A DNA stretch of 64,000 bases from NCBI RefSeq assembly GCF_011007365.1, contig NZ_WFKM01000007.1, forward strand, positions 62,001 through 126,000. Reading direction: 5' to 3'. Shown one piece after another: positions 44,464-47,859 of the stretch. The notes under the pieces were generated by a model. It ran no database searches. It saw only the letters and a program-made list of their open reading frames with translations, and had not been told where the DNA came from. This DNA is from Sphingobacterium sp. xlx-96. GTDB lineage: Bacteria > Bacteroidota > Bacteroidia > Sphingobacteriales > Sphingobacteriaceae. Position numbers and translations under genes: made by a program. Each line of letters begins with the position of its first letter. The first letter of the stretch is position 1.

Positions 44464-45252
44464 TTAAATAGTTAACTGTTTAACAAAGTCTTGCATCGCT
44501 TCTCCTGGATTGGTGGTTTTCATAAAGTTTTCACCAATTAGGAAGGACTGAAATCCGCGTTTTCTTAAATCTAAGATGGTTTTTGGGGCAGAGATTCCAC
44601 TTTCCGAAACTTTGATATACTGATCTGGTATTTTGTTGACAAGGTCGTAGGAATGGTTCAATGAAACGTTGAAATCCTTTAAATTCCGGTTATTTACACC
44701 GATAGCATCGATGCTATCGAAAATGTTATGTTGAAGTTCTTCTTCATTATGTACTTCCAATAACACGTTAAGACCTAGTGATTTAGCGTGTAGGGACAAG
44801 GATTGGACGGCTTCTGAGGTAAGGCATGCGGCAATTAGGAGGATAATGTCTGCTCCATATGCTTTTGCTTCTGTTATTTGATAGCTATCAACGATAAATT
44901 CCTTGCGGAGTAGTGGGATCTGTAGTACTTCCCTAGCACTGCTAAGGTCGGCAAGACTACCTTGAAAGAAGTCCCTGTCGGTAAGTACAGAAATGGCGGA
45001 AGCTCCGGCTGTCTGGTAGCCTTGTACGACTTCTTGGACGGTCGAACTATTATTTATAACCCCTTTAGAAGGCGACGCGCGTTTATATTCGGCAATGATG
45101 CCTGTTCGGAGTGGATTTTCTACCGATTCTTTTAAGGAATAGCAGGATCTAGGAAATAAAGGGAACTTTTCAAGCTGTTGCAAGGATGTTTTGGACTTTG
45201 CTTCGGCAACTTCTGTTTTTTTTCTTTCGATGATTTTATCCAGTATAGTCAT
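44464..45252 (-). CDS. trpC: Indole-3-glycerol phosphate synthase
   Basis: The product has 262 residues from the ATG at 45252 (MTILDKIIERKKTEVAEAK); a TTG 15 nt upstream is not needed. It closes the indole ring in tryptophan synthesis. Motifs: IAEYKRASPSKGVI (catalytic Lys), VLTDRDFFQGS, LLRKEFIVDSYQI, ADIILLIAACL, LLEVHNEEEL (Glu), IGVNNRNLKDF, VSESGISAP and FLIGENFMK. trpD and trpF are not in this cluster. Confidence 0.96.
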   Translation of the reverse strand: MTILDKIIERKKTEVAEAKSKTSLQQLEKFPLFPRSCYSLKESVENPLRTGIIAEYKRASPSKGVINNSSTVQEVVQGYQTAGASAISVLTDRDFFQGSLADLSSAREVLQIPLLRKEFIVDSYQITEAKAYGADIILLIAACLTSEAVQSLSLHAKSLGLNVLLEVHNEEELQHNIFDSIDAIGVNNRNLKDFNVSLNHSYDLVNKIPDQYIKVSESGISAPKTILDLRKRGFQSFLIGENFMKTTNPGEAMQDFVKQLTI

Positions 45253-45257
45253 ATTTG

Positions 45258-45353
45258 TTGTTATCAAGTTCTGAAGTTATATTGTTATCAAGTTATGTTG
45301 TTATTGAGTTGTCTTGTTATGCTGTTATCGAGTTATCTAGTTAACTTGATAAC
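45258..45353. repeat. Degenerate GTTATCAAGTTA repeats with a perfect inverted pair
   Basis: Between trpC and trpG the motif TTGTTATCAAGTTATG recurs about five times with drift (45257, 45282, 45299, 45315, 45322). GTTATCAAGTTA (45284-45295) and TAACTTGATAAC (45342-45353) are exact inverted copies 46 nt apart, so the transcript can fold into a long hairpin between the two genes. An open frame reading through it is not credible. Confidence 0.7.
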
Positions 45354-45395
45354 ATGTTCACTTGTTACCCCGTAACCTTCATAACCTTTTTAACT

Positions 45396-45968
45396 TCATT
45401 TCAACCAATTTTCAATTAATTTCTTTCCATTATCGGTCAATATCGACTCCGGGTGGAATTGCATTCCGCGCACATCGTACTGTTTATGTGCTATGGCCAT
45501 GATAATTCCATTTTCATCGATAGCAGTGATTTTTAGAACGTCCGGTAAACTTTTCTCATCGACAGCCCAAGAGTGGTATCGTCCTATTTTCGATTCTTCG
45601 GGAAAGCCTTGAAAAAGCTTTTCGTCTTTGTCGGTTATAATGATGGATGAAGCTATACCGTGTAGGGGTCTTGACATGTTGAAAAGTTTGCCGCCAAATA
45701 CTTCCGCAATCGCCTGTTGGCCGAGACATATCCCCAAGATACGCTTTTTGGATGCGTAGGTTCGGATTACGTCCATCAGTAGTCCGGCTTCTTCGGGTAT
45801 ACCAGGGCCCGGAGATAGCAATATGTTCTCAAATTGATCGATATAGTCCAGATTGAATTTGTCGTTACGTACGACTTCGTAGTCTACTCCTAATTCCTGT
45901 AACAAATGGACTAGGTTGTAGGTGAAAGAATCATAGTTGTCTATGACTAAAATTTTATCTTTGTTCAT
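45396..45968 (-). CDS. trpG: Anthranilate synthase component II (glutamine amidotransferase)
   Basis: The product has 190 residues. Class I amidotransferase triad: LGICLGQQAIAEVFGG (Cys), and GMQFHPESILT (His, Glu). The oxyanion motif is LLSPGPGIPEEAG. It supplies ammonia to TrpE. Its start overlaps the end of the small orf75 by 14 nt, so translation is coupled. Confidence 0.95.
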   Translation of the reverse strand: MNKDKILVIDNYDSFTYNLVHLLQELGVDYEVVRNDKFNLDYIDQFENILLSPGPGIPEEAGLLMDVIRTYASKKRILGICLGQQAIAEVFGGKLFNMSRPLHGIASSIIITDKDEKLFQGFPEESKIGRYHSWAVDEKSLPDVLKITAIDENGIIMAIAHKQYDVRGMQFHPESILTDNGKKLIENWLK

Positions 45969-46182
45969 CTTGTAACAATTGACTGGTTTCCACTAGTTGC
46001 TGTATTTCTTTATTCGTCGCTATCAAATCTACGAACTCTGTGTCGTTTGTATTTCCTCTCTTTTGTTTTTCTGCCATATACTGTTTGCGTAAATGGAGTA
46101 ATTCCAAAATTCTGGTATCAATAGTTTCGATGCTTGATGTGAGATGTGTCGTATTCTCACAGTATTCAAGAGGACGTATCAT
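45955..46182 (-). CDS. Unnamed 75-residue protein coupled between trpE and trpG
   Basis: The start ATG overlaps the trpE stop in ATGA (46179-46182) and the end overlaps trpG by 14 nt, so it is placed like a real translationally coupled gene. The product is short, highly helical and charged. Residues about 17-45 (SSIETIDTRILELLHLRKQY and MAEKQKR) resemble the first helix of AroQ chorismate mutase (IDxxILxLLxxR...K), and the end (DLIATNKEIQQLVETSQLLQ) could be a second helix. At 75 residues it is too short for a usual 90-100-residue mutase, and the first conserved Arg is not evident. It could be a reduced mutase, a TrpE/TrpG assembly factor or an unrelated helical protein. I do not recognise it as a named family. 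Confidence 0.75.
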   Translation of the reverse strand: MIRPLEYCENTTHLTSSIETIDTRILELLHLRKQYMAEKQKRGNTNDTEFVDLIATNKEIQQLVETSQLLQDEQR

Positions 46183-47582
46183 AGGGTTTGTGCTATTTCA
46201 AGGGCTCTGCGCAGTGCAGCTATTTTGTTGTTTACTTCTTGTAGTTCTTTTTCTGGATCCGAATCCAATACTATACCTGCTCCAGCTTGGTAGTGTAATA
46301 CATTCTTCTTACTCAAGAAGGAACGTATCATGATGGCATGGTTAAAATCTCCGTTGAAGCCCATAAAGCCGATTGCCCCTGCGTAGAAAGAACGTTGCAT
46401 TCCTTCATAGCGATCTATCAACGTGATGGCCATATGTTTTGGGGCACCCGATAGTGTGCCAGCGGGATAGGTGTCGCCGACGACGTCAAATGGATTGGCA
46501 CTAGGCGTTAGTTTTCCCGATACCTTGGAGACTAAATGGATGATATGGGAATAGTACTGTGCTTCTTTGTATGATTTGACTTGAACGTTCGTACAGTGAC
46601 GACTAAGGTCATTGCGGGCCAAATCAACCAGCATGACGTGTTCTGCCGATTCCTTTGGATCATTTTTTAGTTCTTCGGCTATTTTTTCATCTTGTTCCAT
46701 GTCGCCCGTACGTTTGAAGGTTCCCGCTATCGGGTATATGGTTGCCTCTCCCTTTTTGATGGTGAGCTGTGCTTCCGGTGAAGAACCAAAAAGCTTGAAG
46801 TCTCCGTAATCAAAGTAGAATAGGTAAGGGGAAGGGTTGATGGCACGCAGGGCTCGATATACATTGAATTCATCGCCTGCAAATGATGTTGAAAACCCTC
46901 GAGAAGGTACGATTTGGAAGACGTCACCTCTACGTATATGAGCTTTCATTTTGTCAACAAGTGCTTTGAACGATTCATCGGTCATGTTTGATTTCTCTTC
47001 TCCTGTTGTATAGAAAGAATACTCTGGGAAATTTTTGTTTTGAATCAAGTATTCGATACGTTCCAGGTCGCTTTCTTTCTCGTCAAGTAGATGCTCGAAG
47101 ATGTAAAGCTGATTGCGAAAATGATCGATAGCAATGACATATTTGTATACATGGTATTGTAAAAAGGGAATTTTTCGTGCGTCTTCTAATTTGGCGGTGA
47201 GGGTTATATCCTCAAAATGTGCTACAGTGTCGAAGGTGAAATAGCCAAATAATCCGTTGGAAATGACGTTTGTGTCAGCTAGGTATTCTTCCTGAAACGA
47301 TTGCCTAAAAGCGGATACTTCAGTTCGTAAGTCGATGGATGAGGCTGGTTTGACAATCTTTTCTTGGTTTGGATAGCTAATCGTTAAGTCATTTTCATTG
47401 AGTGCTAATCCGGCAATCGGTTGGCAGCAGATATAGCTGATGTTGTTGTCCCGGCTGTGATACTCCGAACTTTCGAGTAGAATAGTGTTTGGAAAGATAT
47501 CCCGCATACGAAGATAGATACTAACTGGTGTGGTGGTGTCAGCTAGTATTTTTTTGTGGTTTGTTTTGAATGCGTATGTCAT
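46179..47582 (-). CDS. trpE: Anthranilate synthase component I
   Basis: The product has 467 residues. The chorismate-binding domain (about 200-460) has MKAHIRRGDVFQIVPSR, SPYLFYFDYGDFKLFGSSPE, IYPIAGTFKRTG, VMLVDLARNDLSRHC, FPAGTLSGAP-like YPAGTLSGAPKHMA, and GAGIVLDSDPEKELQEVNNK. The N-terminal LLESSEYHSRDNNISYICC box is the usual tryptophan feedback site (LLES). It converts chorismate to anthranilate with TrpG. Transcription is controlled by the leader and attenuator at 47676-47822. Confidence 0.96.
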   Translation of the reverse strand: MTYAFKTNHKKILADTTTPVSIYLRMRDIFPNTILLESSEYHSRDNNISYICCQPIAGLALNENDLTISYPNQEKIVKPASSIDLRTEVSAFRQSFQEEYLADTNVISNGLFGYFTFDTVAHFEDITLTAKLEDARKIPFLQYHVYKYVIAIDHFRNQLYIFEHLLDEKESDLERIEYLIQNKNFPEYSFYTTGEEKSNMTDESFKALVDKMKAHIRRGDVFQIVPSRGFSTSFAGDEFNVYRALRAINPSPYLFYFDYGDFKLFGSSPEAQLTIKKGEATIYPIAGTFKRTGDMEQDEKIAEELKNDPKESAEHVMLVDLARNDLSRHCTNVQVKSYKEAQYYSHIIHLVSKVSGKLTPSANPFDVVGDTYPAGTLSGAPKHMAITLIDRYEGMQRSFYAGAIGFMGFNGDFNHAIMIRSFLSKKNVLHYQAGAGIVLDSDPEKELQEVNNKIAALRRALEIAQTL

Positions 47583-47675: not shown

Positions 47676-47707
47676 AAAAAAAGCCCGACGAAATACGTCG
47701 GGCTTTT
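47676..47707 (-). terminator. Attenuator terminator of the trp operon
   Basis: On the minus strand AAAAGCCCGACG (complement of 47696-47707) pairs with CGTCGGGCTTTT (complement of 47679-47690) around TATTT, followed by TTTTTTTG. It stands between the leader peptide gene and trpE, 94 nt before the trpE start. Confidence 0.9.
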
Positions 47708-47738
47708 GATTTATGGTTTTGGTTGATTAAAAAAATCC

Positions 47739-47822
47739 TTATTCTGAAAACCAATAGAGGTGCCTCCCGACGCTATTTGCTCCAGGCCACCACCAAAATT
47801 GATATGTACTTTGTGTCATCAT
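47739..47822 (-). CDS. trp operon leader peptide (TrpL-like), 27 residues
   Basis: ATG at 47822 opens a 27-codon frame with three successive Trp codons and a fourth near the end (start MMTQSTYQFWWWPGANS, later HLYWFSE). The stop is at 47739-47741. Segment CGTCGGG (complement of 47766-47772, codons 17-19) is identical to the terminator 3' arm, so it can pair with CCCGACG of the 5' arm as an antiterminator. GGTGGCCT over the Trp codons can pair with AGGCACC downstream (1:2 hairpin). Ribosome stalling at WWW when Trp-tRNA is low would therefore permit transcription of trpE-orf75-trpG-trpC. This is the classic attenuation layout. No upstream ribosome binding site is evident, and the 5' UTR is only a few bases. 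Confidence 0.9.
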   Translation of the reverse strand: MMTQSTYQFWWWPGANSVGRHLYWFSE

Positions 47823-47829
47823 TACACTG

Positions 47830-47859
47830 CAAATTTAGAATAATTTTTAAATAATCAAA
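47830..47859 (-). promoter_or_regulatory. trp operon promoter
   Basis: On the minus strand: TTTG (complement of 47856-47859), 18-bp spacer, TAAATTTG (complement of 47830-47837), an exact TAnnTTTG -7 box. The predicted start lies about 6 nt before the leader peptide ATG, so the leader message is almost leaderless. Confidence 0.78.

What the first reader, a model, noticed from the sequence alone, without database searches (positions are those of the whole stretch)
47676..47859. Complete trp attenuator with a WWW leader peptide in a Bacteroidota genome
Seen directly: promoter TTTG-N18-TAAATTTG, a 27-codon ORF with TGG TGG TGG plus a fourth TGG, then a strong terminator 94 nt before trpE. The 7-nt segment CGTCGGG inside the leader ORF (codons 17-19) repeats the terminator 3' arm exactly, so it can hold the terminator 5' arm as an antiterminator; GGTGGCCT across the Trp codons can pair with AGGCACC. 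All four segments of classical attenuation are present. The 5' UTR before the leader ATG seems only about 6 nt and has no Shine-Dalgarno site, which would make the leader nearly leaderless. Ribosome-mediated attenuation is best known from Proteobacteria; an example this clear in a phylum that rarely uses SD initiation merits description.
Basis: partly seen in the sequence, partly recalled or inferred. Interest (0 to 1): 0.75.

Follow-up and report, generated by a model that had tools for sequence, protein, structure and literature searches.

The report
Conserved trp attenuator with near-leaderless peptide
Upstream of the tryptophan-synthesis gene trpE of a Sphingobacterium lies a classical on/off RNA switch in which a ribosome stalling on tryptophan codons decides whether transcription continues; it is the expected regulator, conserved across the family and recognisable through much of the Bacteroidota, and its main oddity is that the small control peptide starts almost at the 5' end of the message.

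Summary
On the minus strand, 47859-47676 carries a Bacteroidota promoter, a 27-codon ORF with three adjacent Trp codons, and an intrinsic terminator before trpE. Comparative evidence for ribosome-mediated trp attenuation is strong: all 81 named Sphingobacteriaceae trpE loci (window included) have at least two adjacent Trp codons, 69 have three; antiterminator strand 2 lies about 23 nt after the first Trp codon, pairs with terminator strand 3 and changes together with strands 3 and 4; Ser/Val/Ile codons in strand 2 never vary synonymously. The same genome has a second WWW leader before a separate trpD-F-B operon, found in 30 of 30 genus loci examined. "First in the phylum" is wrong: Rfam's Bacteroid-trp (RF01692) dates from 2010, and leader-peptide attenuation was reported in Flavobacterium in 2021. 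RF01692 and RF00513 do not match this element. The peptide start lies 7 nt after the -7 box, predicting a 3-nt 5' UTR; gaps of 10 nt or less occur in 106 of 139 family loci. A near-invariant AATCAACCAAAACC motif is unexplained. Verdict: ordinary in kind, well supported, modestly new in detail. No expression data were available.

The parts
47830..47859 (-). Predicted sigma-ABfr promoter: -33-like TTTG (47859-47856), 18 nt, -7 box TAAATTTG (47837-47830)
   Evidence: Sequence; TAnnTTTG followed by leader ATG in most relatives; consensus from PMC6847099 and PMC9723704
47823..47825 (-). Predicted 5' UTR of about 3 nt (inferred +1 at 47825)
   Evidence: Inference: -7 element spans -12 to -5 in F. 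johnsoniae and F. psychrophilum; no transcript data for this species
47739..47822 (-). Leader ORF (trpL), MMTQSTYQFWWWPGANSVGRHLYWFSE, 27 codons plus TAA
   Evidence: adjacent Trp codons conserved in 81 of 81 loci
47787..47795 (-). Three consecutive Trp codons (inferred ribosome stall site)
47779..47786 (-). Strand 1, CCUGGAGC, just after the Trp codons; pairs with strand 2
   Evidence: 1:2 hairpin, 89% of cells paired in 38 sequences but no covariation beyond shuffles; fold
47766..47773 (-). Strand 2, GCGUCGGG (codons Ser-Val-Gly); antiterminator strand
   Evidence: 2:3 pairs 96% formed, 11 cells changed on both sides versus 3.2 in shuffles; codons GTC/ATC/AGC never synonymously varied
47715..47728 (-). 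Near-invariant motif AATCAACCAAAACC between leader stop and terminator; role unknown
   Evidence: Exact in 57 of 81 named loci; only exact copy in own genome
47679..47707 (-). Intrinsic terminator hairpin (strand 3 core 47702-47696, strand 4 core 47690-47684), followed by U-tract
46179..47582 (-). trpE, anthranilate synthase component I (regulated gene)
   Evidence: Best NCBIfam match TIGR00564, 421.7 bits, below its equivalog cut-off of 517.7; followed by trpG and trpC
45396..45968 (-). trpG, glutamine amidotransferase of anthranilate synthase
   Evidence: TIGR00566 above cut-off
44464..45267 (-). trpC, indole-3-glycerol phosphate synthase
   Evidence: NF001377 above cut-off

Best explanation
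This is a ribosome-mediated (leader-peptide) transcription attenuator of the trpE-trpG-trpC operon. Transcription starts about 3 nt before the leader AUG and the leader is translated at once. When charged tRNA-Trp is scarce the ribosome stalls on UGG UGG UGG; its footprint hides strand 1 but leaves strand 2 (about 23 nt downstream) free, so strand 2 pairs with strand 3 as soon as 3 is made and the terminator cannot form. When tryptophan is plentiful the ribosome moves on, strand 2 is covered or re-paired with strand 1 behind it, strands 3 and 4 form the terminator, and transcription stops before trpE. Shown here: anatomy, conservation, covariation, spacing, codon constraint, and a twin leader on trpD-F-B. 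Inferred: start site, stalling, and tryptophan dependence.
For: Adjacent Trp codons in a leader ORF upstream of trpE in 81 of 81 named loci, in nearly all of 60 further Sphingobacteriaceae and most of 40 other Bacteroidota sampled. Strand 2 starts 21-23 nt (interquartile) after the first Trp codon, which fits a stalled ribosome covering strand 1 but not strand 2. 2:3 and 3:4 pairs co-vary beyond shuffles; the triple state A-U-A instead of G-C-G needs at least 3 changes on the TrpE tree; distant Bacteroidota with unrelated strand sequences can still show a 2:3 match, for example L227, L235 and L237. Codons in strand 2 are fixed synonymously: Val GTC 35/35, Ile ATC 23/23, Ser AGC at the strand-2 position 44/44. 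Before strand 4 is made, a ribosome stalled on Trp gives P(2:3) about 1.0. Second Trp-codon leader plus terminator upstream of trpD, 30 of 30 genus loci with at least WW. A covariance model finds the element in 91 of 121 family genomes; 10 of the 20 listed misses also lack the trpE hit.
Against: No transcript, ribosome-profiling or reporter data. The full-length equilibrium fold is the terminator in every ribosome position modelled, so the switch must be kinetic. The 1:2 hairpin shows no covariation beyond shuffles. In Olivibacter and similar genera strand 2 pairs with strand 3 only with a mismatch, and averaged over the outgroup the strand-2 match exceeds shuffled sequence only modestly (mean 16.2 versus 12.0).
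Confidence: 0.93

Rival explanations
1. The leader is mainly a small regulatory RNA or peptide acting in trans (as rnTrpL/peTrpL in Sinorhizobium), the attenuator function being secondary.
For: A terminated transcript of about 150 nt starting almost at the AUG would resemble rnTrpL (PMC7298713); the trp genes are split here too, with trpD-F-B elsewhere; a near-invariant motif exists.
Against: trpD-F-B has its own Trp-codon leader, so trans control is not needed; the peptide outside WWW and the strand-encoded codons varies. Trans action was not tested.
Confidence: 0.05
2. A factor (protein or other ligand) binding the AATCAACCAAAACC motif controls termination, the Trp codons being a modulating layer.
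For: The motif is as conserved as or more conserved than the terminator stem in Sphingobacterium.
Against: It is missing or very degenerate in S. corticibacter (L031), Albibacterium (L072) and other families that keep Trp codons and terminator; no candidate factor.
Confidence: 0.05
3. The hairpin is a constitutive terminator or processing site and the sORF is incidental.
For: The terminator is strong and wins at equilibrium in all states.
Against: A separate hairpin (about 47926-47879) already follows trmD; Trp codons, strand spacing and 2:3:4 co-change are conserved.
Confidence: 0.02

Closest known systems
Escherichia coli trp operon attenuator (Rfam RF00513 Trp_leader)
   Same: Trp-codon leader ORF, 1:2, 2:3 and 3:4 alternatives, terminator before trpE (the E. 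coli layout is stated from general knowledge)
   Different: No sequence homology detected (19.8 bits, gathering 41); three Trp codons instead of two; leader stop lies after strand 2 in this clade; near-leaderless; different promoter type
Bacteroid-trp RNA (RF01692)
   Same: Same phylum, upstream of trpE, WWW leader ORF plus terminator
   Different: Window and sampled Sphingobacteriaceae not matched. In RF01692 members the leader segment CGTCGTGA is complementary to the terminator loop plus 3' arm (TCACGACA), here strand 2 pairs with the 5' arm (read by eye); most members have 16-22 nt between box and AUG
Sinorhizobium meliloti trpL / rnTrpL
   Same: Leaderless trp leader ORF in front of trpE(G), split trp genes (PMC7298713)
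   Different: Different phylum; here the second trp operon has its own leader; trans action untested
Leader-peptide attenuators reported in Flavobacterium psychrophilum 5' UTRs
   Same: Same kind of control of amino-acid operons in Bacteroidota (PMC9723704)
   Different: Details are in supplements that could not be read; a different family of bacteria

Membership tests
Ribosome-mediated trp attenuator (mechanistic class) | Short ORF with adjacent Trp codons directly upstream of a trp gene | tested here: met
   81 of 81 loci have at least two adjacent Trp codons
Ribosome-mediated trp attenuator (mechanistic class) | Intrinsic terminator between ORF and structural gene | tested here: met
Ribosome-mediated trp attenuator (mechanistic class) | Antiterminator competing for the terminator 5' arm, supported by covariation | tested here: met
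Ribosome-mediated trp attenuator (mechanistic class) | 1:2 protector hairpin supported by covariation | tested here: inconclusive
   89% of cells paired but not above shuffles in covariation
Ribosome-mediated trp attenuator (mechanistic class) | Tryptophan- and translation-dependent termination | not testable with these tools
   Needs RNA-seq or reporters
Rfam RF01692 Bacteroid-trp | Covariance model score at or above gathering (49 bits) | tested here: not met
   No match in the genome nor in the Sphingobacteriaceae sampled
Rfam RF00513 Trp_leader | Covariance model score at or above gathering (41 bits) | tested here: not met
   19.8 bits
Leaderless or near-leaderless mRNA | Start codon at or within a few nt of the 5' end | tested here: inconclusive
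   Box-to-AUG gap 7 nt predicts a 3-nt UTR; gap of 10 nt or less in 68 of 81 and 38 of 58 family loci; no mapped start site
T-box or other Rfam cis-element | Rfam match in the leader at gathering score | tested here: not met
   Only tRNAs match in the window

The most novel reading that the evidence does not exclude
The near-invariant AATCAACCAAAACC motif is a functional second input or tertiary element (for example pairing with the Trp codons or binding a factor) of a Sphingobacteriaceae-specific attenuator whose leader is translated by a near-leaderless route, so that initiation as well as stalling is part of the switch.
Probability: 0.15. Interest if true: 0.55.

Novelty: new member of a known kind. 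Interest (0 to 1): 0.36.

Why it matters
It indicates that leader-peptide attenuation is the rule before trpE in Sphingobacteriaceae and common across the Bacteroidota sampled, in an SD-poor phylum where the existing Rfam trp-leader model matched chiefly Flavobacteriaceae. It gives a ready covariance model and a natural test of whether near-leaderless initiation suits attenuators, because trpE and trpD leaders in one genome differ in predicted UTR length (about 3 versus about 13 nt).

Tried and rejected
Rfam at permissive thresholds: the low-scoring hits (rnk_pseudo, MicC and so on) appear driven by the GC stem plus U-run and fall below gathering scores; rejected. Equilibrium folding of the whole leader cannot show the switch because the terminator always wins; folding before strand 4 exists was needed. 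Pairing of the CAACCAAAACC motif with the Trp codons was considered (RNAalifold gives 4 essentially invariant pairs), but invariant columns prove nothing; left open. A genome pattern search with the exact -7 consensus missed the trpD leader, whose box is GATATTTG; it was found by reading upstream of trpD. The baseline of box-to-ATG gaps from neighbouring genes turned out to consist largely of orthologues of the same two genes, trmD and dusB, so it is not a fair baseline; published values were used instead. The TACGTTTG...TGGTGG hit in L241 appears to lie inside a coding gene.

Full report
What is there. The window belongs to a Sphingobacterium-like genome (TrpE 94% identical to S. nematocida). 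On the minus strand, between trmD (ends 47994) and trpE (47582-46179), lie a TTTG-N18-TAAATTTG promoter, an ORF at 47822-47739 (MMTQSTYQFWWWPGANSVGRHLYWFSE) and a 12-bp terminator at 47707-47679 with a U-tract. trpG and trpC follow trpE.

Conservation. Eighty trpE loci with organism names were fetched. Together with the window, all 81 have at least two adjacent Trp codons and 69 have three, in a short ORF upstream of trpE. Leader ORFs rich in Trp codons also precede trpE in nearly all of 60 further Sphingobacteriaceae genomes and in most of 40 other Bacteroidota genomes. Those are samples drawn by the tool, not counts over all species.

Switch anatomy. Strand 2 (window GCGUCGGG, codons S-V-G) repeats strand 4 and pairs with strand 3. 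On an alignment of 38 sequences the 2:3 helix is 96% paired, with 11 cells changed on both sides against 3.2 in shuffles; 3:4 is 99% paired with 12 against 3.5. One column triple changes together, G-C-G to A-U-A in 10 of 38 sequences; on a TrpE tree the A-U-A state needs at least 3 changes. Shuffles ignore relatedness, so the tree count is the safer figure. S. hungaricum (L060) changes strand 2 and strand 3 together at another pair. In remote Bacteroidota the strands are quite different (for example GCGGTGGGCC / GGCCCACCGC / GCGGTGGGCT) yet can still match; over the whole outgroup the excess over shuffled sequence is modest. Ser, Val and Ile codons at the strand-2 positions show no synonymous variation (AGC 44/44, GTC 35/35, ATC 23/23), which points to constraint on RNA more than on peptide. 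The hairpin 1:2 (CCTGGAGC:GCGTCGGG) is mostly paired but without covariation support.

How it would work. Strand 2 begins at about +23 from the first Trp codon. A ribosome with any of the three Trp codons in its A site, taking a leading edge about 12 nt beyond the A-site start (general knowledge), hides all or part of strand 1 and leaves strand 2 free. Folding the free RNA before strand 4 has been made gives P(2:3) about 1.0 with a stalled ribosome and 0.88 with none; once strand 4 is present the terminator wins at equilibrium in every case. The switch is therefore kinetic. In this clade the leader stop lies 24 nt beyond strand 2, so passage of the ribosome probably favours 1:2 re-pairing behind it; in the S. 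mizutaii group the stop codon abuts strand 2 (L022, L025, L030), so a terminating ribosome would cover it. These steps are inferred.

Near-leaderless start. In F. johnsoniae and F. psychrophilum the -7 element spans -12 to -5 (PMC6847099; PMC9723704). The 7-nt gap from box to AUG here then predicts a 3-nt 5' UTR. Gaps of 10 nt or less are found in 68 of 81 and 38 of 58 family loci, most often 6, 7 or 10. In published maps short UTRs are a minority: 3.7% below 10 nt in B. thetaiotaomicron (PMC7366714), 5.5% leaderless in F. psychrophilum, and 87% above 10 nt in F. johnsoniae. Among RF01692 members the gap is 16-22 nt in 20 of 29 and 5-7 nt in 7. The neighbouring genes trmD and dusB lie 4 nt after such a box, predicting fully leaderless mRNAs, so the feature is not unique to the attenuator.

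Second leader. The trpD-trpF-trpB operon on another contig has its own leader, MNNFVINNAWWWHNR*, and terminator. All 30 genus loci examined (own genome included) have such a leader with adjacent Trp codons, 28 of them WWW; the gap to the -7-like box is usually 16-19 nt. Two trp operons with independent Trp-codon leaders in one genome support tryptophan control.

Unexplained motif. AATCAACCAAAACC (47728-47715) is exact in 57 of 81 named loci, degenerate in many other Sphingobacteriaceae and not found outside the family; the only exact copy in this genome is here. It sits between strands 2 and 3. Possible pairing with the Trp codons was seen but cannot be tested by covariation because both sides are nearly invariant.

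What is known. RF00513 scores 19.8 bits, below its cut-off. A model built from 38 of these sequences finds the element in 91 of 121 family genomes and reaches trpD leaders and RF01692 members weakly; it was built from part of the same set, so this is a prevalence figure, not independent proof. The literature search covered only open-licence PMC papers; subscription reviews of trp operon regulation were not available, so a description of these leaders elsewhere cannot be excluded.

Noticed in passing
L245 1105-1230 (same genome, G000:C10): Second WWW leader (MNNFVINNAWWWHNR) and terminator upstream of the separate trpD-trpF-trpB operon; such a leader is present in 30 of 30 genus loci examined.
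   Followed up: yes
window 47728-47715 (-): Motif AATCAACCAAAACC, near-invariant in Sphingobacterium trpE leaders, unexplained.
   Followed up: partly
window 48674 and 44388 (-): trmD and dusB start 4 nt after a TAnnTTTG box, predicting fully leaderless mRNAs; same in several relatives.
   Followed up: partly
window 46181-45954 (-): 75-codon ORF overlapping the trpE and trpG ends (MIRPLEYCENTTHL...), resembling the chorismate mutase helix pattern by eye; no Pfam match above cut-off.
   Followed up: partly
window 45260-45367: Degenerate AT-rich tandem array (periods 8, 16 and 24: GTTATCAAGTTA...) between trpG and trpC.
   Followed up: no
L003 and L001, trpE upstream: About 90 nt more between terminator and trpE than in the window, containing an ATG-starting stretch similar to the trpE start (ATGAAATACTCATG..., ATGAAATATCCATA...).
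   Followed up: no
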